From an uncultured Clostridia bacterium (GTDB lineage: Bacteria; Bacillota; Clostridia; Christensenellales; Aristaeellaceae), in contig CAMVHE010000024.1 in the NCBI GenBank assembly GCA_947167215.1, positions 1-38,534 on the forward strand: a DNA stretch of 38,534 nt, given 5' to 3'. Position numbers and translations under genes: made by a program. Positions 16,485 through 27,016 of this stretch are shown in pieces (position 1 is the stretch's first letter; each line of letters opens with the position of its first letter). The notes under the pieces are model-generated. The model made no database searches, was not told the origin of the DNA, and was given only the letters and a program-made list of their open reading frames with translations.

Positions 16485-16737
16485 GAATATATAAATGGAA
16501 GAGCGCAGCAGCGGCTGGAACAAGCGGGCTTCCGTGACGGGAAAACCTCATGGAACGCCCCTTTGGAAAGCAGGATATGTCTTCTCTCTGCGGAGTTCTG
16601 AAGGCTATGGAAGATACATGATGCTTTCTGACCAGAAAATGCCAGTGCAGAGGAATACTTTTTTGAAAACACCAGGAAATGAAGAAGAATTCGATAAGAA
16701 ACGGATAGAGGAAACCCGAGAGAAAGAAGGTGCAAGA

Positions 16738-17910
16738 ATGTCTTTGATTTCCGATTATGAGCAGAGAACGGTCTGGAAATACGAACCAATTCACGGCTCG
16801 TTCAGTACGGCAGATGGACTGACCCTGAAAGTGAATGAGGACGGAAGCTACCGCCGGTTTTCCGGAAGTACCGTGGTAATCAGACCGGAGGCGAGATGCT
16901 TTCAAAGCATACAGAGGATGCAGCGTGTACTTCTTCAACAGCTGAAGGACACGGATATGCTGGCAGAGCGCCTTCCCGCATCAACCATTCATATGACATT
17001 GCACGACCTGATTTCTCCGGAGGTGTGCAGTATGGCCTCTGCACAGGAATACAATCAAAAAGTTGAAGACAGTATCAGCAGAGCAGCAGACATTGCGGAA
17101 GAGGTTCGAAAGAGGAGTGCAGGACAAAAGATCACCATGGTTTCGGACAGAATTGTTAACATGGTGTCGAAATCACTGGTACTGATGCTGCGGCCGAAAA
17201 CAGAACAGGATTATGAGATGCTGCTTCAGATGCGTCATCCTTTTGACGCGATACAGACTTTTCCTTATCCTTTCACTCCGCATATTACACTTGCATATTT
17301 TCGACCGGGGGTGCTGAATGGTGACCTTCTTGGGAAGGCCGTCGATTATGCTCAGATCAGGCAGGAAAATGCACCGGTATTCGAGTTTTATCCGGAAGGC
17401 TTGACGGTACAGCGATTTCTGGATATGAAGACCTATATGGATGTTCCGGAGCGGATATGCTTCTGCTGTGACGGGGGGCTTAATCGCAGCGTGATGGCGG
17501 CAAACATCCTGAATGATCTTGCCGGAAAACGAAAACTTCCGGTTACAGGGCAGGCAAGGGCAGCCTTTCCTGATACACAGGGGTGGATGGTTTCGGAACT
17601 GGTCTGGAAAACGCTGGAGAAGAATGGAATATCCCCGGACAGAACATATTCATCGAGCCGCTATCTCGAAGAAAGGGAATTATCCTGGTTTACTGCTTTT
17701 GCAGGTATTTCCGATGGGGCGCTGGGCAGGCTCCTGCAATTGAATCTGCCGGAAGAGAAAGTAACCGGAGTGAGCCATTTCTTTTATGGCGTCAGGGATC
17801 CGGAATACGGAGAAATTACCCATGAACAGGCTTTCAGAGAGCTGTATGACAGGACGGAAAAATACCTGGATGCATATGAGGCTGTTTTCAGAAAGCATGT
17901 GGGAGGTTGA
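16738..17910 (+). CDS. Fusion of 2H phosphoesterase-like and low-molecular-weight phosphatase-like domains
   Basis: The 390-residue protein joins two catalytic-looking domains. Residues about 45-230 contain the paired H-x-T signatures of 2H phosphoesterases: HMT at 85-87 and HIT at 182-184 (in FTPHITLAYF). Enzymes of that family open 2',3'-cyclic phosphates or 2'-5' linkages in RNA. Residues about 237-385 look like a low-molecular-weight tyrosine phosphatase/arsenate reductase: a C-x5-R-S loop at C244-R250 (CDGGLNRS) and the general-acid loop DPEYG near 342. The start is the ATG at 16738 with GAAGG upstream; the in-frame ATG at 16495 lies about four bases past the predicted transcription start. 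It opens the island that contains WYL regulators and RtcB, so RNA end processing is a reasonable inference, but no substrate can be read. Confidence 0.75.
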   Translation: MSLISDYEQRTVWKYEPIHGSFSTADGLTLKVNEDGSYRRFSGSTVVIRPEARCFQSIQRMQRVLLQQLKDTDMLAERLPASTIHMTLHDLISPEVCSMASAQEYNQKVEDSISRAADIAEEVRKRSAGQKITMVSDRIVNMVSKSLVLMLRPKTEQDYEMLLQMRHPFDAIQTFPYPFTPHITLAYFRPGVLNGDLLGKAVDYAQIRQENAPVFEFYPEGLTVQRFLDMKTYMDVPERICFCCDGGLNRSVMAANILNDLAGKRKLPVTGQARAAFPDTQGWMVSELVWKTLEKNGISPDRTYSSSRYLEERELSWFTAFAGISDGALGRLLQLNLPEEKVTGVSHFFYGVRDPEYGEITHEQAFRELYDRTEKYLDAYEAVFRKHVGG

Positions 17911-18296
17911 GAACAGCCATTGCAGGAAATGAGGGGAACACCAGGAATCGGAATTCTGAGGGGAAGGAAATTCTGGAAGCTTTTCCCTGCCGGCCTGAGT
18001 CGCATGAAGTGCAGAAGTAAAGGCATGTATGCGATGGTGCCCGGAACCCACATCAATTGTTTTTTCGTCATACCCGGCGCGGGACCGTTCCGGAAACAGG
18101 TAAAAAAGAACAATCTGCATCCGGAAGACTGTGACCGGGAAAAAGGCAAACAACGGTAAATATTTGTCATTGGCGTGCTCTATGTCTGCGGACCTTTCCC
18201 TCCTGGCAGAAAAAACGGCAGCAAGCGGCACGATGCCAGGAAAACCGATTCTTCAGGGAAGAGAGCGGATGTAAATTGGGAGGACAGTGAAACCAT
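17911..18296. other. Intergenic region without a recognised gene
   Basis: About 385 bases between the fusion gene and the first WYL gene. Short overlapping frames exist on both strands without ribosome sites or family features. No strong terminator separates the two genes, and I find no promoter I would defend. Confidence 0.45.
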
Positions 18297-19517
18297 ATGG
18301 CTTACAGCGAACTGATTAAGGATTTCAAACGGATAAGGGCCTATCTTCGATCCTTTTATGTATATGGTTTTCGCCACAGGGAAGACTATACTCAGAAAAG
18401 CGCACGAAGCTATGATAATGAGCGAAGAAGGGTGGAAAGCTGGCTCGGGGAGTATATGTCATTCAGACAGGATGCAGAAGGCAGACGCGTGTTCCTGTCA
18501 GTAGACAGTCGGGCAATACCGGAAAATCCCCTGTATCGTGCGTTTCGCGCCAAGAGTTTTACGGACAGGGATATTACATTGCATTTCCATATTCTGGATA
18601 TTCTGAAAGAGAAAAGCGTTTCGATCACAGGCATGATGGATGCGCTGACGGAAAGACTGTCCGGATTTGAATCGGATGACCTGCCGGATGAGTCAACAGT
18701 ACGGAAAAAACTCAAGGAATATTCTGCTCTGGGACTTGTGACAATGAGGAAACAGGGGAGGGAGACCATCTATGAGATTGGTGGCGCCGCACCCAACCTG
18801 TCCAGCTGGAGTACGGCGATTGCCTTTTTTTCGGAGGCTTTTCCACTGGGAGTAATCGGCTCTTTTATTCAGGACCGGATCCCGGAGCGATTCCGCCAAT
18901 TTCGATTCAAGCACCACTATATTCTGAATGCACTGGACAGTGAAATCCTGTTTGAACTGTTTTCTGCCATTGGGGAACATCGGCAGGTTACTATAACGGC
19001 CCAAAGACAAAAGGTTACGACTTTGCCCCTTAAAATCTTCATTGGAACCCAGACCGGGAGGCAGTATCTTCTGGCATGGTCCCCGAAAACAGAACATTTT
19101 TCCTATTACCGGGCAGACCGGATTGACAGCGTAAAACCAGAAGAGGTCTTTGCATGCCCGGATGATCTGGAGGAGCGGACGAATGATTTCTGTGCTCATT
19201 CCTGGGGAATTACGGGAAATAACTGTTTCCGCCTTGAACACATCGCCATGACGGTCTTTGTCGGGCCGGAAGAAGGTCATATCGTTGAAAGGCTGATGCG
19301 GGAAAAACGCTGTGGAAAGGTCGAACAGCGGGATGACACCCACTGGACTTTCTCGGCAGATGTGTATGAGGCATTTGAACTGCTTCCGTGGCTTCGGACA
19401 TTTACGGGAAGGGTGACGGATCTGCAGTGCACGGATAAGCGGGTCCTCAATCGGTTTTGGGAAGATTTCGAGAAGATGTCACAGATGTATGGAGGGGGAA
19501 GCGATGCTGTTTCATGA
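18297..19517 (+). CDS. WYL-domain transcriptional regulator (first of a pair)
   Basis: WYL proteins are regulators whose WYL domain binds nucleic acid or nucleotide ligands. This 406-residue member has an N-terminal region (about 1-80) with FKRIRAYLRSFYVYGFRHR and a basic SYDNERRRVESWL stretch. A winged-helix-like segment follows (about 95-165, with ITGMMDALTERL and TVRKKLKEYSALGLV). The WYL domain and C-terminal extension (about 225-400) contain LPLKIFIGTQTGRQYLLAWSP and YRADRIDSVK. GGGAGG lies 13 bases before the ATG, slightly long, but the N-terminal MAYSELIKDFKRIR agrees with the usual start of this protein type. The gene overlaps the second WYL gene by 14 bases. Confidence 0.85.
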   Translation: MAYSELIKDFKRIRAYLRSFYVYGFRHREDYTQKSARSYDNERRRVESWLGEYMSFRQDAEGRRVFLSVDSRAIPENPLYRAFRAKSFTDRDITLHFHILDILKEKSVSITGMMDALTERLSGFESDDLPDESTVRKKLKEYSALGLVTMRKQGRETIYEIGGAAPNLSSWSTAIAFFSEAFPLGVIGSFIQDRIPERFRQFRFKHHYILNALDSEILFELFSAIGEHRQVTITAQRQKVTTLPLKIFIGTQTGRQYLLAWSPKTEHFSYYRADRIDSVKPEEVFACPDDLEERTNDFCAHSWGITGNNCFRLEHIAMTVFVGPEEGHIVERLMREKRCGKVEQRDDTHWTFSADVYEAFELLPWLRTFTGRVTDLQCTDKRVLNRFWEDFEKMSQMYGGGSDAVS

Positions 19518-20424
19518 AATCTATGGCAGTTATTATCGGGCTGCGGCTTCCATCCTGAAAGAAGCGGTACAGGGAAAACTGACAGGAAAAGAACTGGATG
19601 CGCTTATACGGAAATATGCATTCGGGGAAAGTATGCTGACAATTCCTGAAGGGATGAAAGGGGAGAAATGGAGACTGATCCATAAGGACCTTTCCACACC
19701 GATTCAAGAGGTGCCCGATATGCCGCTCACGCTGCTGGAAAAAAGGTGGATGAAGGCGCTGTTGCTGGACCCGAGAATACAGCTGTTTGAGCCGGAGATG
19801 CATGGCCTGGAAAACGTGGATCCGCTGTTTACGCCGGAGATGATTGTGTATTATGACCGGTATCAGGACGGAGATGATTATCAGAATCCGGAATACAGGC
19901 GGCACTTTCAGACTATCCTGCAGGCACTTCGGGAAAAAAGGAATCTTTATGTGAGCTTTGAATCGAGAATGCATGCACATCCCAGACTGGTACTGACCCC
20001 GCACTATCTGGAATATTCGGAGAAGGATGACCGGTTCAGACTGGTTGCAGCAGGCAGAAAACGGCAGTGGACGATCAATCTGTCCCGGATTACGGCATGC
20101 CGGTCTGTGGATGGAGGTCCGTGCATGCCGCTGAGGGAAATGGTGAAAAATACCGTGACATTTGAACTCGAGGACCGGCGCAATGCATTGAACCGGGTGC
20201 TGCTGCATTTTTCCCACCTCGAGAAGGAAACAAAGCGTCTGGATGAAAACAGATATCAGGTTACACTCCGGTATGATAAAAAGGATGAGACGGAAATGGT
20301 GATACGCATTCTTTCCTTTGGCGCTGCAGTGAGGGTGACCGAACCGGATAGTTTTATTGCGCTCATACGGGACAGAATAGACAGGCAGAAAGGACTCGCA
20401 ACTTTTTTTCCGGGAATGCCGTGA
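19504..20424 (+). CDS. WYL-domain protein (second of a pair)
   Basis: The 306-residue protein is a shorter WYL-type partner. Its N-terminal part (about 1-110) is helical and lacks an obvious winged helix. The WYL-like core (about 135-205) includes KRNLYVSFESRMHAHPRLVLTPHYLEYS and FRLVAAGRKRQWTINLSRITACR, followed by a WCX-like C-terminal domain. The ATG at 19504 has GGAGGGGG eight bases upstream and lies inside the end of the first WYL gene, so the two are translationally coupled and may form a heteromer, as the PafB/PafC pair does elsewhere. rtcB follows 39 bases later without a terminator. Confidence 0.8.
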   Translation: MLFHEIYGSYYRAAASILKEAVQGKLTGKELDALIRKYAFGESMLTIPEGMKGEKWRLIHKDLSTPIQEVPDMPLTLLEKRWMKALLLDPRIQLFEPEMHGLENVDPLFTPEMIVYYDRYQDGDDYQNPEYRRHFQTILQALREKRNLYVSFESRMHAHPRLVLTPHYLEYSEKDDRFRLVAAGRKRQWTINLSRITACRSVDGGPCMPLREMVKNTVTFELEDRRNALNRVLLHFSHLEKETKRLDENRYQVTLRYDKKDETEMVIRILSFGAAVRVTEPDSFIALIRDRIDRQKGLATFFPGMP

Positions 20425-20463
20425 ATATACGGCGCATAATACCAGCGAAAGGAGGGAATATTC

Positions 20464-21672
20464 ATGATTGAGATTCGCGGAAAGCACAATACTGCTGTCT
20501 GCTATACGGATACGATGGAAGAGACGGCCCGACAGCAGATACAGGATATGTGCGACCAGCAGGTATTTGAAGGAGCTCGGATCCGGGTTATGCCCGACGT
20601 ACATGCAGGAGCAGGATGTACTATCGGTACAACCATGACGATTAAGGATAAGGTGGCTCCAAATCTGGTGGGGGTGGATATTGGCTGCGGCATGGAAACC
20701 GTGAAGCTGGCGGAAAGGGAATTGGATTTCTCCAAGCTGGACCGGATCATCCGCGAACAGATTCCATCCGGAGAGAATGTCCGTAATACCCCTCATCCGC
20801 TGACCGAAATGATTGACCTTAATGCGCTGCGCTGTGTATCGGCAGTCAAGCTGGACCGTGCCATGCTCAGCATTGGAACCCTTGGAGGAGGAAATCATTT
20901 TATTGAAGTTGACCGGGATGAGGACGGATACCTCTATCTGGTGATTCATTCCGGAAGCCGTTATTTAGGAGTTCAGACAGCAGGCTATTATCGCCGGATA
21001 GGATGGAAGGCCATGAACAGCGTTCCGAATGAATCACGGTGTGAACTGATTGAACGCTATAAGGCAGAAGGCCGTCCGCAGGAGATAGAAAATGGACTGC
21101 GGGAGATGGAGGAAAACTTTATTGCATCCCAGACAATTCCGGAGCAGTTCGCATACGTGGAAGGAAGCAATCTGCTGGACTACCTTCATGATATGCAGAT
21201 TGTTCAATGGTATGCAACCCTGAACCGGCAGGCAATGACACAGACAATTATTGATGGAATGGGACTGACGGAGACAGAACGTTTTACGACTATTCATAAC
21301 TATATTGATACGGAAAACAGGATTCTGAGAAAGGGATCCGTTTCAGCACAGAAGGGAGAGCGTCTTCTGATTCCCATCAATATGAGGGATGGGGCACTGA
21401 TCTGCATTGGAAAGGGAAATCCGGAATGGAACTGTTCTGCACCGCATGGAGCAGGACGCATCCTGAGCAGGAAGGCAGCTCAGAATACACTGACGGTAGA
21501 AGAGTTTCGCCGGGAGATGCAGGGAATTTATACCACCTGCGTAGCGCAGAGCACGCTGGACGAGTCCCCGATGGCATACAAGGGGTTGGAAGAAATTCTG
21601 GAACAGATAGGGCCCACCGCAGAGGTGGTAAAGCAGATCAGGCCGGTTTTCAATTTTAAGGCTGGAACCTGA
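20464..21672 (+). CDS. rtcB: RNA-splicing ligase RtcB
   Basis: RtcB joins RNA ends bearing 2',3'-cyclic or 3' phosphate to 5'-OH ends, using GTP and Mn2+, and can mend tRNAs cut by anticodon nucleases. The 402-residue protein has the expected motifs: MPDVHAGAGCTIGTT (D45, H47), GVDIGCGM (metal-binding C75), LGGGNHFIE (H145), VIHSGSR (H162), HNY (H278), RKGSVSA, and SAPHGAGR with the histidine guanylylated in catalysis (H328), then DESPMAYK. It is somewhat shorter than typical bacterial RtcB (about 400-480). AAAGGAGGG precedes the ATG. No RtcA cyclase and no archease gene is visible. A terminator follows directly. Confidence 0.96.
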   Translation: MIEIRGKHNTAVCYTDTMEETARQQIQDMCDQQVFEGARIRVMPDVHAGAGCTIGTTMTIKDKVAPNLVGVDIGCGMETVKLAERELDFSKLDRIIREQIPSGENVRNTPHPLTEMIDLNALRCVSAVKLDRAMLSIGTLGGGNHFIEVDRDEDGYLYLVIHSGSRYLGVQTAGYYRRIGWKAMNSVPNESRCELIERYKAEGRPQEIENGLREMEENFIASQTIPEQFAYVEGSNLLDYLHDMQIVQWYATLNRQAMTQTIIDGMGLTETERFTTIHNYIDTENRILRKGSVSAQKGERLLIPINMRDGALICIGKGNPEWNCSAPHGAGRILSRKAAQNTLTVEEFRREMQGIYTTCVAQSTLDESPMAYKGLEEILEQIGPTAEVVKQIRPVFNFKAGT

Positions 21673-21676
21673 AAAC

Positions 21677-21715
21677 AGAGGAACGTCAGAGAGGACGCTC
21701 CTCTTCTTTTCTTGT
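21677..21715 (+). terminator. Intrinsic terminator after rtcB
   Basis: AGAGGA (21677-21682) pairs with TCCTCT (21699-21704) and CGTC (21684-21687) with GACG (21694-21697) across one mismatch, followed by TCTTTTCTT. It separates the protein genes from the RNA array. Confidence 0.85.
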
Positions 21716-21844
21716 CTGATGGCATCCTCTTTGGTGGAAGTGCAGGAAGAAAAGGTGGTTATTATATTGCTGCCGGCAGGAAAAGAAGGCAGAAGACTGT
21801 AAACACCGTATCATCATATGTTCCTGGTTTCCGGTTTATATGTT

Positions 21845-21888
21845 CGCAACTTTTTCGCCGGGAAGATCAGGAAAGGGCATGGTATAGT
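21845..21888 (+). promoter_or_regulatory. Array promoter copy 1 with conserved upstream box
   Basis: CGCAACTTTTTCGCCGGGA begins at 21845. An extended -10, TG-G-TATAGT, with TATAGT at 21883-21888, lies 38 bases from the start of the box. No sigma-A -35 is visible at the right distance (GGGAAG there). The box would cover about -50 to -32, the position of an activator that contacts RNA polymerase. The whole segment matches copy 2 without gaps. The two WYL proteins are the obvious candidate activators, by inference. Confidence 0.65.
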
Positions 21889-21894
21889 ACAATC

Positions 21895-21983
21895 ACCAAA
21901 GGGAAAAGCACAGACGGCAAGAAACAGATCTTGCGTTGGAGATATGGGCACGACACATGCAGGAAATTCCCCAGGGAGCATAT
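21895..21983 (+). ncRNA. Candidate small RNA from array promoter 1
   Basis: Promoter copy 1 would start a transcript near 21895. The first part contains a perfect hairpin, GCAAGA (21917-21922)/TCTTGC (21929-21934), and GGGAA (21901-21905) could close it with TTCCC (21967-21971). This leaves a short stem made by the RNA's ends, loosely like a Y RNA. There is no T-arm. The RNA might instead simply read through into promoter copy 2 and the array. This is a tentative call. Confidence 0.3.
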
Positions 21984-22027
21984 CGCAACTTTTTCGCCGG
22001 GAGGAACAGGGAAAAAAGTTGTAAAGT
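21984..22027 (+). promoter_or_regulatory. Array promoter copy 2 with conserved upstream box
   Basis: CGCAACTTTTTCGCCGGGA recurs at 21984, 139 bases after copy 1, and the -10-like TAAAGT at 22022-22027 is again 38 bases from the box. Bases conserved with copy 1 continue as GA, CAGG, GTA, AGTA and AATC. Transcription would start near 22034, directly at the base of the first structured RNA. The -35 region again lacks TTGACA, which suggests activator dependence. Confidence 0.65.
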
Positions 22028-22033
22028 AGAATC

Positions 22034-22150
22034 CTGAGAAGCACGTACAGCAATGATTTCCATTTTAAGGCGTTATTGCGGGTTCGACTCCCGCCGGCAT
22101 CAGAAGATGCTGTAGTTAAACGGTTATAACAACGAAAAACCGTGCTTCGT
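22034..22150 (+). ncRNA. Candidate YrlA-type Y RNA with permuted tRNA-like domain
   Basis: The RNA would begin at promoter copy 2. Its ends pair over 8 bp, GAAGCACG (22038-22045) with CGTGCTTC (22141-22148). Inside, in permuted order, lie a perfect T-arm (GCGGG 22078-22082, loop TTCGACT, CCCGC 22090-22094) and an acceptor-like stem CGGCATC (22095-22101)/GATGCTG (22106-22112) closed by the loop AGAA. Then come TA in the place of U8-A9, and a D-arm GTTA (22115-22118)/TAAC (22127-22130) whose loop contains GG. CGT (22071-22073) can pair with ACG (22132-22134) like an anticodon-stem remnant. The tRNA elbow elements are therefore intact but the gene order is 3' half then 5' half. Bacterial Y RNAs are known to lie beside Ro60 genes and often mimic tRNA, and this one lies in the same array as a Ro60-like gene. 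The alternative is two truncated tRNA pseudogenes side by side. Confidence 0.55.
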
Positions 22151-22154
22151 ATAT

Positions 22155-22265
22155 GGCCATGCAGTTCAACCGGCGGACTGACCTTTTGCAGGAAACGGAT
22201 CATGGCACGTTTAATGCGAAAATGCCGTTTTAATCCCGCAAGGAATCACCCGCAAGGAATCACCA
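22155..22265 (+). ncRNA. Degenerate tRNA-like module, with tandemly duplicated CCA end
   Basis: GCCATG (22156-22161) pairs perfectly with CATGGC (22201-22206). This encloses a D-arm-like hairpin, GTTC (22164-22167)/GGAC (22175-22178) with GG in its loop, and a weak anticodon-like hairpin around CC/GG (22182-22192) with a TTG triplet. No T-arm lies inside. Downstream, the 14-base unit CGCAAGGAATCACC occurs twice in tandem (22237-22250 and 22251-22264), and the second copy ends in ACCA. It may be a T-armless mini-tRNA-like RNA or the decayed remnant of one or two modules. Confidence 0.35.
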
Positions 22266-22269
22266 ATAT

Positions 22270-22346
22270 GCATCTGCAGCTCAGGAGGTCAGAGCGGCGG
22301 CCTTATAAGCCGCGTGTCCGGGGGTCGAGTCTCTGAAGACGCACCA
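22270..22346 (+). tRNA. tRNA-like RNA, anticodon-position UAU (Ile-like), encoded CCA
   Basis: The cloverleaf can be drawn fully. Acceptor: GCATCTG/AAGACGC, with mismatches A-C and G-A. D-arm: GCTC (22279-22282)/GAGC (22292-22295). Anticodon stem: perfect GCGGC (22297-22301)/GCCGC (22309-22313) around CTTATAA. T-stem: CGGGG/CTCTG with two G-U pairs. The 3' end is A plus CCA at 22343-22346. The T-loop is GTCGAGT, so the nearly universal U54 is G. With its acceptor mismatches it looks unfit for translation but kept as a fold. It lies four bases before the next module. Confidence 0.65.
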
Positions 22347-22347
22347 C

Positions 22348-22421
22348 GTTTCCTTCGTTTAATGGAAAGGACACCTGCTTCCTGAGCAGGAAATGTGAGT
22401 TCAATTATCACAGGAATATCA
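22348..22421 (+). tRNA. tRNA-like RNA, anticodon-position CCU (Arg-like), no encoded CCA
   Basis: Acceptor GTTTCCT (22348-22354) pairs with AGGAATA (22412-22418) at five of seven positions. D-arm GTTT/GGAC includes two G-U pairs. The anticodon stem CCTGC (22374-22378)/GCAGG (22386-22390) is perfect around TTCCTGA. T-arm GTGAG/ATCAC has a TTCAATT loop, but the invariant 53-61 G-C pair is G-A. It ends in T-CA instead of N-CCA. The 5' half resembles ordinary bacterial tRNA-Arg(CCU), so descent from such a gene is likely. Confidence 0.6.
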
Positions 22422-22424
22422 AAT

Positions 22425-22500
22425 GCATCTGTAACTCAACTGGGAGAGTAACGGTCTCTTAAAATGTGAGGTGCAGGTTCGAAACCTGTCAGCTGCACCA
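22425..22500 (+). tRNA. tRNA-like RNA, anticodon-position CUU (Lys-like), encoded CCA
   Basis: This is the most tRNA-like module. Acceptor GCATCTG (22425-22431) pairs with CAGCTGC (22490-22496) at six of seven positions (one T-C). U8 and A9 are present, and D-arm ACTC/GAGT is perfect with GGG in the loop. Anticodon stem ACGGT/AATGT has one G-A mismatch and one G-U around CTCTTAA. T-arm GCAGG/CCTGT has loop TTCGAAA. A73-CCA is at 22497-22500. It could be a working tRNA-Lys(CUU), or a mimic like its neighbours. It shares its GCATCTG 5' end with the UAU module. Confidence 0.7.
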
Positions 22501-22507
22501 GTTAAAG

Positions 22508-22580
22508 GCACGCACAGCAAAGATAATGCAGATACCATTTAAGTATTACGGAACGGTTCGATTCCCGTATAAGCGTGGCC
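22508..22580 (+). ncRNA. Degenerate tRNA-like RNA, last module of the array
   Basis: CACGC (22509-22513) pairs with GCGTG (22573-22577). The D-arm-like GCA/TGC spans 22517-22529. The anticodon-like stem GATAC (22531-22535)/GTATT (22543-22547) is complete around CATTTAA, where position 33 is A instead of U. The T-arm is ACGG/CCGT around TTCGATTC, apparently one G short of a normal five-pair stem. No CCA follows; GGCC stands there. Its 5' stretch GCACGCACAGCAAAGAT closely matches GCACGTACAGCAATGAT at 22041-22057, so the first and last array members share an origin. It ends 57 bases before the DUF2828 start codon. Confidence 0.5.
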
Positions 22581-22637
22581 GCTTCCAGCAAATTAACGTG
22601 CCTTGTTAATCAGAAAATGCGGAAAGGAGAGAATATC

Positions 22638-24092
22638 ATGCTGAATTTTTTGAAGAAGATGGCAGACCGGACTTTTACCGAGAACGGTGCAGCTGCTCCG
22701 CGCACCACCGATTCTGACTGTCTGGACCTGTTTGCGATCACTGGCGCCTGGCGCTCCCAGAGCGATTCGGAGATCGAAAACCGATTCCTTCGCGCTTATG
22801 CGGAGAACCCGGACCTGGCAATGAAGATTCTCTTCTATGCCCGTGATATCCGGGGAGGACTTGGGGAGCGTCGTGTGTTTCGTGTTCTTCTCGGGTGGCT
22901 GGCAGAAAACGAGAAGGCATCCCTGGTACGAAATCTGCCTTATATTGAGGAATATGGCCGGTGGGATGATATTCTGGTCCTGCTGGATACCCCGGTGAGC
23001 CGGGAGGCACAGGCAGTACTGTACCGGCAGTTTCTGGCAGACAGGAAGGCGCTGGAAAATGGTGAGCCGGTTTCCCTGCTCGGCAAGTGGCTGCCTTCCG
23101 TAAATGCTTCCAATCCGGAGACCGTTCAAAAGGCAAAGCAGCTTGTCCGTGCATTCGGCATGAGCGAGAAGCAGTATCGTAAGACATTGTCCATGCTCCG
23201 TGAGGAGATCCGTATTATCGAGAATAATTTGCGCGAGCGGGACTATACCTTCGATTATGCAAAGCAGCCATCCGGGGCGATGTTCAAGTACCGCCGTGCA
23301 TTCATGCGAAATGACCAGAAGCGTTATGAGGCGTACCTGATGCAGGTAAAGTCCGGCGAGGCAGTGCTCCATACCGGCACGCTGATGCCCTATGAGATTG
23401 TAACTTCAGCATATATTGCTGGGGAGGATGAGCGTGAGGTTCTGAATGTGACCTGGTCTGCACTGGAGGACTTTACCGGCAGCGAAAACGCGCTTGTCGT
23501 AGCTGACGGTTCGGGCTCTATGTACTGGGGCAGCAATCCTCAGCCTGCTGCGGTGGCACAGTCCCTGGCGATCTACTTTGCAGAGCGGAATCAGGGGGCG
23601 TTTCATAACCACTTTATCACCTTCTCCATGACGCCGCAGCTTGTGGAAATCAGGGGCAGGGGTATTGTGGAGAAGGTCCGGTACTGCCGTTCTTTCAATG
23701 AGTGTGCCAATACAAACCTGCAGGCAGTATTTGAGCTGATTCTGAGGACGGCGGTGGAGAACCGACTGCCGCAGAGGGAACTGCCGGCGACCCTGTACAT
23801 CGTATCCGACATGGAGTTTGATGCCTGCGCATGCAACTCCTCACTTTCAAACTTTGAGCAGGCGAAGCGGCAATATGAACAATTCGGCTACAGGCTTCCG
23901 CGGATAGTATTCTGGAATGTCCAGTCCCGAAATGAGCATCAGCCCGTGAAGATGAATGAGCAGGGATGCGCCCTGGTTTCCGGCTGTACGCCGCGCATCT
24001 TCTCCCAGGTCATGTCCGGCGAGATGGACCCGTATACCAACATGATGAATGTCATTGGCAGTGAACGGTATGCAGTGATCAGGGCTGGATGA
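22638..24092 (+). CDS. DUF2828 protein, Ro60/TROVE-like with vWA domain
   Basis: The 484-residue protein has a helical N-terminal part (about 25-270) with the signature ARDIRGGLGERRVFR at 68-82, then a von Willebrand A-type domain. The metal-binding DGSGSM motif of that domain lies near residue 290, followed by FHNHFITFSMTPQLVEIRG and the late YIVSDMEFDA strand. This layout, helical repeats plus a MIDAS-containing vWA domain, parallels Ro60, the ring protein that holds Y RNAs and misfolded RNAs. The relationship is inferred from architecture and context, not shown. The ATG at 22638 has AAAGGAGAG upstream. The tRNA-like array leads directly into it with no terminator, so RNA array and protein probably share a transcript. 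A strong terminator follows. Confidence 0.8.
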   Translation: MLNFLKKMADRTFTENGAAAPRTTDSDCLDLFAITGAWRSQSDSEIENRFLRAYAENPDLAMKILFYARDIRGGLGERRVFRVLLGWLAENEKASLVRNLPYIEEYGRWDDILVLLDTPVSREAQAVLYRQFLADRKALENGEPVSLLGKWLPSVNASNPETVQKAKQLVRAFGMSEKQYRKTLSMLREEIRIIENNLRERDYTFDYAKQPSGAMFKYRRAFMRNDQKRYEAYLMQVKSGEAVLHTGTLMPYEIVTSAYIAGEDEREVLNVTWSALEDFTGSENALVVADGSGSMYWGSNPQPAAVAQSLAIYFAERNQGAFHNHFITFSMTPQLVEIRGRGIVEKVRYCRSFNECANTNLQAVFELILRTAVENRLPQRELPATLYIVSDMEFDACACNSSLSNFEQAKRQYEQFGYRLPRIVFWNVQSRNEHQPVKMNEQGCALVSGCTPRIFSQVMSGEMDPYTNMMNVIGSERYAVIRAG

Positions 24093-24201
24093 AAAAAGAG
24101 ACGTACATCTTTGAAGAAGGAACTGCAGAAAATGGGAAAAGTGCAGGCCTGCCCTGTCTCTGAGAGCTGGCGGCAGATGCATTCCCGATACTGGTGAACA
24201 A

Positions 24202-24249
24202 AAGCATCAATAATGCAACATAAATTGCAATATTGATGCTTGCTTTTTT
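24202..24249 (+). terminator. Long intrinsic terminator after the DUF2828 gene
   Basis: AAGCATCAATA (24202-24212) pairs over 11 bp with TATTGATGCTT (24231-24241). TGCAA/TTGCA continues the stem after one A-A mismatch, and GC plus TTTTTT follows. It marks the right end of the RNA-repair island. Confidence 0.93.
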
Positions 24250-24296: not shown

Positions 24297-24450
24297 ATGG
24301 AAAAGAAAATTGCAGCAAACGAACAGCTTTTTCGGGATTATCCTGTGTGGAAATCGATAGCAATGCTTGCTGTTCCGTCCCTGCTGTCGATCCTGGTCAT
24401 GATATTCTATAATATGGCAGATACCTTTTTTATTGCTCAGCTTGGCATCC
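24297..24450 (+). pseudogene. N-terminal remnant of a MATE-family efflux transporter
   Basis: The frame from ATG 24297, with GGGGAGGG upstream, reads WKSIAMLAVPSLLSILVMIFYNMADTFFIAQLG, the first membrane helix and following NMAD motif of MATE multidrug/Na+ antiporters. Homology stops abruptly near 24445 after about 50 of some 450 residues. The frame then runs into unrelated residues and a stop at 24498-24500. The rest of the transporter is gone. Confidence 0.8.
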
Positions 24451-24603
24451 AGCAGAGTAACAGACGAAAACCGTATGCTGTATTATTATCAGTTTATTAA
24501 GGCCGGGATGATGAGCATACTGAAACTCTGGCTGGATAGAAACTGTGAGGAAACACCGGACGAAATTGCAGGAATGATGGCAAAGCTGATTAAAAGGTAC
24601 TGA
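24451..24603 (+). pseudogene. C-terminal remnant of a TetR-family regulator
   Basis: In a different frame from the MATE fragment, codons from about 24472 to the TGA at 24601-24603 read RMLYYYQFIKAG, then MMSILKLWLDRNCEETPDEIA and MMAKLIKRY. This resembles the ligand-domain end of TetR regulators, which commonly sit beside efflux pumps. The helix-turn-helix half is missing. The abrupt junction with the MATE fragment points to one deletion that fused a pump gene start to a regulator gene end. Confidence 0.6.
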
Positions 24604-24713
24604 AAGGCAACGAAATAATGCATTTCACAACGGTCCGTTTTTCTGAATGATAATACAGACGGAAAACAGAATCCGTATCAGAACGGGGGAGTCCTTGATA
24701 AAGGGACAGGGCA

Positions 24714-24784
24714 AGCAGAAGCCAATGGAATGGCTTCTGCCAGTCGGGGCACCAGGATATCTTCTGATATCCGGTGCTTTTTTT
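24714..24784 (+). terminator. Tandem hairpins, the second an intrinsic terminator
   Basis: GCAGAAGCCA (24715-24724) pairs perfectly with TGGCTTCTGC (24731-24740). Eight bases later GCACC-A-GGATATC (24749-24761) pairs with GATATCC-GGTGC (24766-24777) around TTCT, followed by seven T. Either this ends the decayed MATE/TetR transcript or the pair is a leader controlling the downstream secreted-protein gene. I recognise no riboswitch class. Confidence 0.75.
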
Positions 24785-24928
24785 CAGATGCATTATCTGC
24801 GTGGAATATATGCTTCAAACCCTGGAAGACGATTTTCTGAACCAGATATCATGGAAAGGAAAAAAAACGGTTTTCCACTCGTTTCTATCATGTACGGAGT
24901 ACAGACCGTCCATGAAAGGAAGATAAAA

Positions 24929-27016
24929 ATGAAGAAATTATTAGCGTTATCGGTATTGCTGGTCATGATATTCATGGTGACATGCGTCGAAGCAGATAAT
25001 ACGGCGCTTCATCTTTTTGAACAGCTTAATGGACAGATGTTTGAGTTCTCAAGCGGTGTTGGAGCCTGGAGTACCGAACTGATTATGGACGAAAACGGTA
25101 CCTTTGAGGGCTACTTCCATGATGGCGAGATGGGGGAAACAGGGGAAGGATATCCGGACGGTACCGTTTATGGGTGTTCTTTCCACGGGTGTTTTTCTGA
25201 CCCGAAATCCATCGATGAATATACCTGGACCGTAAACATTGTCCTGGAGCAGGATGAGGGACAGGTCCCTGAGGCCATTGAGGACGGAGTTCGTTATGTC
25301 ACTGCCGCACCATATGGTCTGGAAAAGGCAGAAACGGTTACCGTTTTTCTTCCTGGGACGCCGGTGGAAAAACTTCCGGAGGGCTTTATGCTCTGGTCCC
25401 ATCTGACGGAGATTGACCCGGATGCAGAGACAATTCCGTACTATGCAATCTGGAATGAGGCCGATGAAAGCGGATTTGTTTCGTCCATGTTTGAGGATAT
25501 CCAGGACGGACCGCTGTCGGGCGGCTGGATGCCTGCATGGGAGTCCGATATCACGGATGAACGGAAAGCTTTGTTTGACAGGGGAATAAACGGGCTTGTC
25601 GGGGTAAACTATGAACCGGTGGCCTATCTTGGATCTCAGATAGTGGCAGGAACAAATCATGCCTTCCTTTGCAGGGCAACGGTGGTCTATCCTGGCGCAC
25701 AGCCGAAATATGTAATTGTGTATCTGTATGAAGACCTGCAGGGAAACGTATCCATCCTGAACATTGCTGACTTTGACATCGGCAGTTATTGCACCTATGG
25801 CGAGGAAGATTCCCACAGTGATTTTGCGGAATTCGATGCCATGAAAATCACGGGGAATATTGAAAACGGGTGCTATGTGCTGACTGTACAGCTGGATGGA
25901 ACGGGTGAATGGCGTGCAGCTGAGTTGCCGGAGGAAGACTCTGCGGTGAAACTTGCGGCTTCCGGCATTGAAAATGATGTTTTTACAGCTCACTATGAAC
26001 CTATCAGTGACGGTGAAGCGACCGTGGAGCTGCATCATTTCAATGAGCATAACCTGTGTGACGAAATACATTCCTTCAGCCTGGTGGTAAAGGACGGCAA
26101 AGTGCAGGAAGTGAACGGAGGTTCTTTTGAGGCATCGCCGGATGAATGGGAATTGAATCCCTACTTCTCCGGAGAATGGATGGAAACGGAAAATCAGTTT
26201 ACTTTGCTGAATGTTACGAAAAAGATCGGGGACGGATGGGACATTGAAATCATTTCTCCTGTCTCTCACGGAGCCTGGGTTATCAGAGCGACAGCATATT
26301 ATGACTGCAGCTATGATGCCTTTGTGTATACTGACGGCATACAATATGACCTGATACCGGGAGAGACTATGCAGGAAAAGGAAAAGGCAAGAGACCTGCA
26401 GGGAACACTGAGCTTTGTCGAAAGCGGGGACAGCCTCCAACTGGTTTGGCAGGATGTGCAGAATTCCCAGGCTGAAGCAGTTGCTTTTGAAAGAGCACCC
26501 GGACTGCCCCCATATGCTTACGCCGAAGGTGACGCACTGGAGGGAGCCATAGCCAATTATCTGGCAGACAGCGAGATTGCAAAAAATTATCTGACAGAAC
26601 CGGGTTATGTGACAATTCCCTGCCCGATCATTCATGAAACGGAAATACCGGATGAGTCGCATGCCAAAGTATATGGATCTTTCTGGATATTGAATTATGT
26701 GAAGCGGGGAGATATACTGTACAATATCTCGGGCGGAGAGCATTCGGGTATCGTTACGCTGGAAAAGGAGACGGATGGCTCCTGGAGAGTAACAGGCATG
26801 GAAGAAGCCGGCGACGGTGAAGACTATGTAAGGGATATCCAGCGGTTCTCAGATGGAAACGAAGCCCTGGAAGAAAAATACTTTTCAGGAGCAGATCTTG
26901 GAACGGAAGCAAATCAGGCAGTCCGTACGCGCTTTGTCAAAGCATATGTTGAATCCAACGGACTGAATATTTTCGCATATCAGGATTATGGATGGAAACC
27001 AGTTCCACTGGAATAG
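24929..27016 (+). CDS. Large secreted protein of unknown function
   Basis: The 695-residue protein has a signal peptide (residues 1-22, MKKLLALSVLLVMIFMVTC then VEA) and an otherwise soluble, acidic, Trp/Tyr-rich body. Repeated beta-rich stretches such as GTFEGYFHDGEMGETGEGYPDGTVYGCSF and, later, WELNPYFSGEWM suggest beta-barrel or sandwich domains. A cysteine at residue 19 lacks a proper lipobox. I do not recognise a family. The ATG at 24929 has GAAAGGA upstream; the longer in-frame start at 24647 would run through the terminator hairpins and is rejected. A smaller secreted protein follows 52 bases later, likely in the same operon. Confidence 0.7.
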   Translation: MKKLLALSVLLVMIFMVTCVEADNTALHLFEQLNGQMFEFSSGVGAWSTELIMDENGTFEGYFHDGEMGETGEGYPDGTVYGCSFHGCFSDPKSIDEYTWTVNIVLEQDEGQVPEAIEDGVRYVTAAPYGLEKAETVTVFLPGTPVEKLPEGFMLWSHLTEIDPDAETIPYYAIWNEADESGFVSSMFEDIQDGPLSGGWMPAWESDITDERKALFDRGINGLVGVNYEPVAYLGSQIVAGTNHAFLCRATVVYPGAQPKYVIVYLYEDLQGNVSILNIADFDIGSYCTYGEEDSHSDFAEFDAMKITGNIENGCYVLTVQLDGTGEWRAAELPEEDSAVKLAASGIENDVFTAHYEPISDGEATVELHHFNEHNLCDEIHSFSLVVKDGKVQEVNGGSFEASPDEWELNPYFSGEWMETENQFTLLNVTKKIGDGWDIEIISPVSHGAWVIRATAYYDCSYDAFVYTDGIQYDLIPGETMQEKEKARDLQGTLSFVESGDSLQLVWQDVQNSQAEAVAFERAPGLPPYAYAEGDALEGAIANYLADSEIAKNYLTEPGYVTIPCPIIHETEIPDESHAKVYGSFWILNYVKRGDILYNISGGEHSGIVTLEKETDGSWRVTGMEEAGDGEDYVRDIQRFSDGNEALEEKYFSGADLGTEANQAVRTRFVKAYVESNGLNIFAYQDYGWKPVPLE

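What the first reader, a model, noticed from the sequence alone, without database searches (positions are those of the whole stretch)
16738..24249. RNA-repair island: 2H/LMW-phosphatase fusion, WYL pair, RtcB, tRNA-like RNA array and Ro60-like DUF2828 protein
Seen: the order fusion enzyme, WYL, WYL, rtcB, terminator, two array promoters, six structured tRNA-like modules, DUF2828-vWA gene, terminator, all on one strand. Known: in Salmonella the Ro60 orthologue rsr, Y RNAs and rtcBA share an operon controlled by RtcR; RtcB rejoins cleaved RNAs; Y RNAs can mimic tRNA. Inferred: this is a Firmicute counterpart with different parts (WYL for RtcR, DUF2828 for Ro60, 2H enzyme for end processing), possibly induced by tRNA cleavage during toxin or phage attack. 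The expanded array of imperfect tRNA mimics is the part least like known systems and could act as decoy, guide or quality-control RNA.
Basis: partly seen in the sequence, partly recalled or inferred. Interest (0 to 1): 0.95.

Follow-up and report, generated by a model that had tools for sequence, protein, structure and literature searches.

The report
Ro60-like protein with tRNA-mimic RNA arrays
Gut clostridia, and many phages, carry a Ro60-like RNA-binding protein beside small RNA cassettes that share one docking stem and often display pieces of tRNA, in the bacteria apparently under one promoter element together with an RNA-repair ligase; this points to an unrecognised RNA repair or decoy machine.

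Summary
Observation partly confirmed; interpretation partly supported and extended. WYL1-WYL2-rtcB-array-DUF2828 is real and recurs. DUF2828 is a Ro60 homologue by fold. The array's main unit is a cassette, not a tRNA gene: closing stem ARRYRC/GYRYYT, fixed ACAGCAA loop, variable insert. In 84 cellular loci 217 such 5' motifs lie within 1.8 kb upstream of DUF2828, against 18 elsewhere on both strands; 209 of 217 have an exact partner. Phage DUF2828 genes have the cassette too. Inserts include circularly permuted tRNAs, normal-order tRNAs and single anticodon arms (76 of 209; shuffled mean 2.6); 104 of 209 are unrecognised. A 20-nt box at fixed distance from a -10 marks arrays and rtcB: 19 exact sites in 14 genomes, all at this system. 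WYL1 resembles DriD and PafBC, DNA-damage activators. The 2H/phosphatase fusion is absent from all 80 related loci. Most likely: a WYL-switched Ro60-type RNP displaying tRNA decoys or baits, with RtcB repair. Decoy versus tether is undecided; transcription and binding were not tested.

The parts
16495..17910 (+). 2H-like / LMW phosphatase fusion, 471 aa; adjacent gene, not part of the conserved locus
   Evidence: Pfam LMWPc 27.7 bits over its cut-off, 2H families below theirs; H-x-T/S motifs at residues 166 and 263; 0 of 80 DUF2828 loci hold a homologue
18297..19517 (+). WYL1, predicted winged-helix WYL regulator
   Evidence: Pfam WYL, WYL in 23 and PaaX (N-terminal helix-turn-helix) in 7 of 28 homologues; AF2 model pLDDT 70.1, pTM 0.52; all 30 Foldseek hits with E<=0.001 are WYL regulators
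19489..20424 (+). WYL2, second WYL/WCX protein, overlaps WYL1
   Evidence: Pfam WCX in 22 and WYL in 14 of 23 homologues, no helix-turn-helix family
20395..20440 (+). box plus -10 (CATAAT at offset 40) in front of rtcB
   Evidence: exact genome-wide site G000:C24:20396-20415
20464..21672 (+). rtcB, phage-type RtcB RNA ligase
   Evidence: Pfam RtcB 198 bits, phrog_1075 436.6 bits; motifs IGCG, GGGNHF, IHSGSR, HGAGR present
21689..21705 (+). terminator-like hairpin after rtcB
   Evidence: not above shuffled expectation
21843..21888 (+). box plus -10 (TATAGT at offset 40), first array promoter
   Evidence: TAnnnT at offset 40 in 63 of 72 boxes
21982..22027 (+). box plus -10 (TAAAGT at offset 40), second array promoter
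22038..22148 (+). cassette 1: closing stem, ACAGCAA, circularly permuted tRNA (T-arm, acceptor hairpin, D-arm)
   Evidence: fold z -3.34, 0 of 200 shuffles; alignment A3; weak YrlA match 29.7 bits
   Evidence: z 0.10
22270..22346 (+). tRNA-Ile(UAU)-like unit (anticodon read by eye)
   Evidence: Rfam tRNA 39.5 bits
22348..22420 (+). tRNA-Arg(CCU)-like unit
   Evidence: ARAGORN, Rfam tRNA 35.1 bits
22425..22500 (+). tRNA-Lys(CUU)-like unit
   Evidence: ARAGORN, Rfam tRNA 43.9 bits; 91% identical to its counterpart in the second array
22505..22604 (+). cassette 2: closing stem, ACAGCAA, anticodon-arm-like hairpin and T-arm-like segment
   Evidence: fold of 22504-22613
22638..24092 (+). DUF2828/DUF7788 Ro60-like protein, 484 aa
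   Evidence: Pfam PF11443 and PF25043; phrog_850 RNA-binding protein; AF2 pLDDT 88.6; Foldseek Ro60
24200..24245 (+). inverted repeat and T run after DUF2828
   Evidence: seen by eye; not reported by the scan

Best explanation
The locus encodes an inducible Ro60-type ribonucleoprotein. DUF2828 is a Ro60-fold ring-plus-vWA protein. The cassettes are its Y-like RNAs: the closing stem with the fixed ACAGCAA loop is the dock, and the insert is a display module that mimics tRNA: a circularly permuted tRNA, a normal-order tRNA, or one anticodon arm with varied anticodons. The two WYL proteins form a PafBC-like pair that senses broken single-stranded nucleic acid and switches on the box promoters of the array and rtcB. 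The displayed modules then draw tRNA-cleaving nucleases (bait or decoy) or hold broken tRNA, and RtcB reseals cleaved ends. Phages with the same pair would use it to protect translation against host anticodon nucleases. Shown by comparison: fold, cassette, box, co-occurrence. Inferred: RNP binding, induction, ligand, decoy role.
For: Ro60 fold. Cassette linked to DUF2828: 217 motifs in 1.8 kb upstream versus 16 elsewhere on the same strand and 2 on the other; 78 of 84 loci; 209 of 217 with exact partner versus 58.6 (max 74) with permuted downstream sequence and 10.8 shuffled. Looser cassette on the DUF2828 strand versus the other: 243/10 in 89 viral-contig loci, 31/3 in 11 named phages, 216/15 in 80 cellular loci. 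Anticodon arms, T-loops excluded: 76 of 209 cellular (shuffled 2.6, max 9) and 31 of 127 viral (2.4, max 7); all 20 arrays with two or more arms show different anticodons (chance of that not computed). Box: 19 exact sites in 13 of 14 genomes, 0 for the reversed pattern, all 19 next to cassettes, WYL genes or rtcB; TAnnnT at offset 40 in 63 of 72. WYL1 to DriD/PafBC; PafBC is a heterodimeric WYL factor triggered by single-stranded DNA (PMC11804915, start of abstract). RtcB active-site motifs kept. Salmonella counterpart rsr-yrlBA-rtcBA is induced by cleaved tRNA (PMC7790460, passages).
Against: 104 of 209 inserts show no tRNA arm; a laxer arm test adds only 9 (shuffled 1.0). Salmonella YrlA was not cleaved by the SOS-induced nuclease (PMC7790460, passages). 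Sf14, a phage related to Sf13 by its description, was argued by its authors not to need nuclease escape for its tRNAs (PMC12482277, passages). WYL or RtcB is missing near DUF2828 in 9 of 48 loci with long flanks, and WYL1 in 20 of 48. Phage copies: no box or WYL link was examined systematically. No anticodon nuclease was sought in these genomes. WYL1 model is of modest quality. Most genomes were chosen because they carry the system.
Confidence: 0.45

Rival explanations
1. Tether or adaptor, as for YrlA in RYPER: the tRNA-like insert recruits tRNA-binding enzymes (PNPase, modification enzymes, RtcB) to the DUF2828 ring for repair or decay of damaged RNA; no nuclease is lured.
For: YrlA tethers PNPase to Rsr and is modified by DusA and TruB (PMC8394870, passages); the permuted cassettes match the YrlA fold weakly (29.4 bits); rtcB shares the box.
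Against: Does not by itself explain many different anticodon arms in arrays (31 distinct anticodons in 209 cassettes) or cassettes with an arm and no T-arm (43 of 209).
Confidence: 0.3
2. The array is a decayed phage-like tRNA operon; the cassettes are processing or stability elements, and the tRNA-like parts are remnants without their own role.
For: Array tRNA-likes are the weakest tRNA matches of the genome and at most 74% identical to the compared canonical tRNAs; phage DUF2828 genes often sit beside tRNA arrays.
Against: Closing stems keep exact pairing across 11 stem types; anticodon arms are far above shuffles; box and -10 are kept at fixed spacing.
Confidence: 0.12
3. Functional tRNA supply: the units are charged and used in translation.
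For: Three window units have anticodons and a CCA-like end in some.
Against: Degenerate scores; circular permutation removes the anticodon arm and closes the acceptor; single-arm cassettes cannot be charged as tRNA.
Confidence: 0.04
4. RNA antitoxin array of type III toxin-antitoxin kind.
For: Tandem structured RNA next to a protein gene.
Against: The partner has a Ro60 fold and matches no PADLOC model; inserts differ between cassettes rather than repeat.
Confidence: 0.03

Closest known systems
Salmonella rsr-yrlBA-rtcBA RNA repair operon
   Same: Ro60-type protein, Y RNAs with tRNA-like domain and RtcB under one control, signal linked to RNA damage (PMC7790460, passages)
   Different: DUF2828 instead of TROVE by sequence; WYL pair and a box instead of sigma-54 RtcR/CARF; no rtcA seen among the genes examined here (not searched for); up to 8 motif-bearing cassettes per locus with anticodon arms
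YrlA (Rfam RF02553)
   Same: Closing stem plus circularly permuted tRNA module (permutation of YrlA: PMC11472068, passages)
   Different: Far below the Rfam threshold (29.4 of 69 bits); other stem and loop motif; many cassettes are not permuted tRNAs
PafBC and DriD WYL activators
   Same: Tandem WYL pair (PafBC), predicted fold, promoters with a conserved element at fixed distance from -10
   Different: Regulon is RNA repair, box TTCGCAACTTTTTTTCCGTGA differs; ligand unknown
Phage tRNA counter-defence
   Same: Phage-borne tRNA or tRNA mimic may neutralise tRNA-cleaving defence (PMC11555353, abstract; PMC10264068, search listing)
   Different: There real tRNAs are supplied; here stem-docked mimics with a Ro60-like protein
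'Ro-like RNA binding protein' of mycobacteriophages
   Same: Same DUF2828 family, so named in phage records
   Different: The cassettes beside it (L246 16461 and 16663) carry no annotation in the record shown

Membership tests
Ro60/TROVE | Ro60 fold: helical-repeat ring plus vWA | tested here: met
   AF2 pLDDT 88.6, pTM 0.87; 12 of 12 Foldseek hits with E<=0.001 are Ro60/TROVE, TM 0.48-0.61 by query length
Ro60/TROVE | Sequence match to the TROVE family or to solved Ro60 chains | tested here: not met
   Pfam at E<=0.01 gives only DUF2828 and DUF7788; profile search of PDB chains 0 hits at E<=0.1
Ro60/TROVE | vWA MIDAS residues DxSxS, T, D | tested here: met
   D296, S298, S300, T365, D397 invariant in 40 sequences; their role as MIDAS is recalled, not tested
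Ro60/TROVE | Binds Y RNA | not testable with these tools
   Only genomic linkage to cassettes
YrlA (RF02553) | Score above the Rfam gathering threshold | tested here: not met
   29.7 and 29.4 versus 69 bits
YrlA (RF02553) | Circularly permuted tRNA module closed by a Ro-binding stem | tested here: met
   12 cassettes aligned, D-arm (not used to pick them) paired in 75% of cells; applies to a minority of cassettes
tRNA | Canonical tRNA score and arms | tested here: not met
   Window units pass Rfam's threshold (35-44 bits versus 29) but are the genome's weakest with one unit of the other array
RtcB ligase | Family profile and active-site motifs | tested here: met
PafBC-like WYL pair | Two tandem WYL proteins, winged helix, WYL/WCX fold | tested here: met
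   helix-turn-helix found for WYL1 only
PafBC-like WYL pair | Activated by single-stranded nucleic acid | not testable with these tools
   Inference from DriD and PafBC
Salmonella-type rtc operon | RtcR sigma-54 regulator | not tested
   A WYL pair occupies the place; no search for RtcR was made

The most novel reading that the evidence does not exclude
DUF2828 proteins, in hundreds of bacterial genomes and phages, are Ro60-type platforms with their own unrecognised Y-RNA class: interchangeable docking cassettes that collect mimics of whatever RNA is attacked (tRNA anticodon arms, permuted tRNAs, and in two cases an exact copy of 23S helix 71). The array is a diversifying bait repertoire in an arms race over tRNA and rRNA cleavage, used by bacteria for repair and by phages for counter-defence.
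Probability: 0.3. Interest if true: 0.95.

Novelty: new variant of a known kind. Interest (0 to 1): 0.85.

Why it matters
What Y RNAs do has been open for decades, and bacterial examples were few. Here is a Ro60-fold family with a recognisable RNA partner beside it in most of the bacterial and phage loci examined (73 of 80 and 79 of 89), in arrays that show on their face what each RNA mimics. Cultured bacteria (for example Oscillibacter valericigenes Sjm18-20) and laboratory phages (LeBron on M. smegmatis mc2 155; PJN02 on B. subtilis) carry it, so RNA binding, induction and a role against tRNA cleavage can be tested directly. It also gives a reason for the 'Ro-like' and 'RNA-binding' proteins beside phage tRNA arrays, and predicts a WYL-controlled RNA-damage response.

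Tried and rejected
2H/phosphatase fusion as an end-processing member: rejected as part of the locus (0 of 80 loci; no box nearby), kept as a possible partner of RtcB (5 of 5 carriers).

rRNA mimicry in general: rejected. Against 16S and 23S of two genomes, matches of 24 bits or more were 8 of 209, as in shuffles (8, 9, 3). Only the two helix-71 inserts (24 and 19 nt exact, L112 and L151) stand out. Three inserts (L102, L109, L127) resemble the 23S stretch near 900-946, but the shared pattern was in 0 of 391 Clostridia genomes, and 23S was found in only 1 of 15 genomes searched, none of these three hosts: unproven.

Stem diversity within arrays: same-stem pairs 37 of 305 against 44.5 expected, P 0.13, not significant.

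Rfam scans for other mimicked RNAs gave tRNA and sub-threshold hits; an SAM riboswitch in L113 lies outside the array. Sigma-70 consensus promoters: 0 in the region, 4.2 expected.

Covariation on A3 (45 cells changed on both sides, shuffled 12.6; 13 of 22 pairs): rows were picked by T-arm, acceptor hairpin and closing stem, so only the D-arm is independent. Of 16 rows classed as permuted I dropped 5 by eye and added L081. L149 and L161 were dropped from the DUF2828 alignment because their frames hold a stop.

Anticodon arms: the figure 94 of 209 includes T-loops; (76 of 209) replaces it. Viral loci include near-duplicates; the 127 viral cassettes were made unique, the strand counts were not.
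Full report
What is there. The window belongs to a 3.83-Mb assembly in 204 contigs (contamination 7.14%). On the + strand lie a 2H-like/LMW-phosphatase fusion, two WYL proteins, rtcB, an RNA array and a DUF2828/DUF7788 protein. RtcB is of the phage type (phrog_1075, 436.6 bits) and keeps the motifs IGCG, GGGNHF, IHSGSR and HGAGR (their catalytic meaning is recalled). DUF2828 most likely begins at 22638.

DUF2828 is a Ro60 by fold. An AlphaFold2 model from 40 sequences has pLDDT 88.6 and pTM 0.87. All 12 Foldseek hits in the PDB with E<=0.001 are Ro60 or TROVE entries, among them Deinococcus Rsr and a Thermus phage Ro60. Sequence does not show it: no Pfam TROVE hit at E<=0.01, no PDB chain at E<=0.1 with a profile. 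Phage records already call the family 'Ro-like' or 'RNA-binding', so that relation is not new; a search for DUF2828 in the paper library found 4 papers, none on bacteria or phages by title.

The cassette. Upstream of DUF2828 genes I found a repeated unit: ARRYRCNN-ACAGCAA, an insert, and the exact partner GYRYYT followed by TG in most. By the 5' motif alone, 84 cellular loci (80, L072, L044, the window, L041) have 217 within 1.8 kb upstream (78 of 84 loci), 16 elsewhere on that strand in 1.08 Mb and 2 on the other strand. 209 of 217 have the exact partner within 260 nt; with downstream sequences permuted among cassettes 58.6 (max 74 in 200), shuffled 10.8 (max 19 in 50). Eleven stem types occur, so pairing is kept while the bases change.

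Inserts. A mechanical sorting of the 209 gives 43 with an anticodon-type arm only, 25 with anticodon arm then T-arm, 21 with T-arm only, 16 with T-arm and acceptor hairpin, 104 with none. With T-loops excluded, 76 of 209 have a 5-bp arm with a YUnnnRn loop (shuffled 2.6, max 9), 31 different anticodons; all 20 arrays with two or more such arms show different anticodons (chance not computed). Twelve cassettes, among them window 22038-22148, are circularly permuted tRNAs: T-arm, acceptor hairpin, D-arm, with the closing stem in place of the anticodon stem. That is the layout of YrlA (PMC11472068 and PMC8394870, passages), yet YrlA's model gives only 29.7 and 29.4 bits of 69. Covariation on these rows is strong but partly selected (see Tried and rejected). 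Two inserts in different genomes copy 24 and 19 nt of 23S helix 71 exactly (helix name recalled).

Phages. tblastn finds DUF2828 in 680 of 50,697 phage records. The strict motif occurs 163 times on the DUF2828 strand and once on the other in 93 viral loci; 127 unique cassettes with partner lie in 52 loci, 31 with an anticodon arm. A looser form (any 6-bp stem, ACAGCRA) gives 243 versus 10 in 89 viral-contig loci (79 with at least one), 31 versus 3 in 11 named phages (10 with at least one) and 216 versus 15 in 80 cellular loci (73). By eye, phages of Bacillus, Enterococcus and Shigella hold permuted-tRNA cassettes, and LeBron has two small ones just after its 'Ro-like' gene. Listeria phages AG20 and P100 also hold rtcB near by.

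Regulation. A box TTCGCAACTTTTTTTCCGTGA stands at the arrays; TAnnnT begins 40 nt after its start in 63 of 72 boxes. It lies within 2.5 kb upstream of DUF2828 in 54 of 80 loci (58 sites; 8 elsewhere on that strand, 1 on the other, in 1.14 Mb). Over 14 whole genomes, most chosen as carriers, the exact pattern has 19 sites in 13 genomes and the reversed control none; each of the 19 is followed by cassettes, or by rtcB, or follows WYL2. In the window boxes precede rtcB (20395) and, twice, the array (21843, 21982). WYL1 is in 47 of 80 loci, 43 of them with the box. In 48 loci with long flanks WYL1 is in 28, RtcB in 28, either in 39. Among 100 relatives (own included), 5 have a strong WYL1 match; all 5 have RtcB (24 of 100) and 4 have DUF2828 (7 of 100) (P 0.0006 and 0.00004, phylogeny ignored). 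WYL1's model is modest (pLDDT 70.1, pTM 0.52), but all 30 Foldseek hits with E<=0.001 are WYL regulators, DriD and PafBC first. PafBC is a WYL heterodimer triggered by single-stranded DNA (PMC11804915, start of abstract).

How it most likely works. Broken RNA or DNA ends activate the WYL pair; box promoters make RtcB and cassette RNAs (and DUF2828 by read-through, inferred); DUF2828 docks cassettes by their common stem; the inserts show tRNA anticodon arms or tRNA shapes. I favour bait or decoy for tRNA-cleaving nucleases, with RtcB resealing, because the varied parts are those such nucleases attack and because phages carry the same pair. Hughes et al. suggested that YrlA could be a competitive inhibitor of the anticodon nuclease, and also that it was not cut (PMC7790460, passages). 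The main rival is tethering of tRNA-binding enzymes, as YrlA tethers PNPase (PMC8394870, passages). Nothing here shows transcription, binding or induction.

What is known and what is new. Ro60-Y RNA-RtcB operons are known; jumbo phages with TROVE are known (PMC7824862, passages); a Vibrio phage Ro60 relative was noted (PMC7765460, passages). New as far as my searches go: the cassette beside DUF2828, the anticodon-arm inserts and the WYL box. Burroughs and Aravind 2016, Chen et al. 2014 and two Wolin reviews are not held, so overlap with them could not be checked.

Noticed in passing
G000:C14:38227-39720 (L039, L041): Second DUF2828 gene, 80% identical, with its own box, tRNA-like units and cassettes; with 7.14% assembly contamination it could come from another strain.
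   Followed up: partly
L255, L256, L267: Box plus cassette with no DUF2828 hit within the fetched stretch: orphan arrays in G118 and G113.
   Followed up: no
L112 7457 and L151 6452: Cassette inserts that copy 24 and 19 nt of 23S rRNA exactly.
   Followed up: partly
L102 7321, L109 7755, L127 7883: Three related inserts that resemble the 23S stretch near 900-946; not confirmed.
   Followed up: partly
104 of 209 cellular cassettes: Inserts without a recognised tRNA arm; only a few cluster with inserts of other loci.
   Followed up: partly
L263 (G100:C1:475197): WYL1-WYL2-box without a strict cassette in the next 1.5 kb.
   Followed up: no
window 24647-27016: 789-aa ORF without Pfam or NCBIfam match, just after a short frame at 24297-24500 that looks like a cut-off transporter start by eye.
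   Followed up: no
L248, Shigella phage Sf13: Cassettes with the stem AGACC/GGTCT lie between annotated tRNA genes after DUF2828.
   Followed up: no
genus of the window: The 2H/phosphatase fusion occurs in 5 of 29 genomes, all with RtcB, on other contigs.
   Followed up: partly
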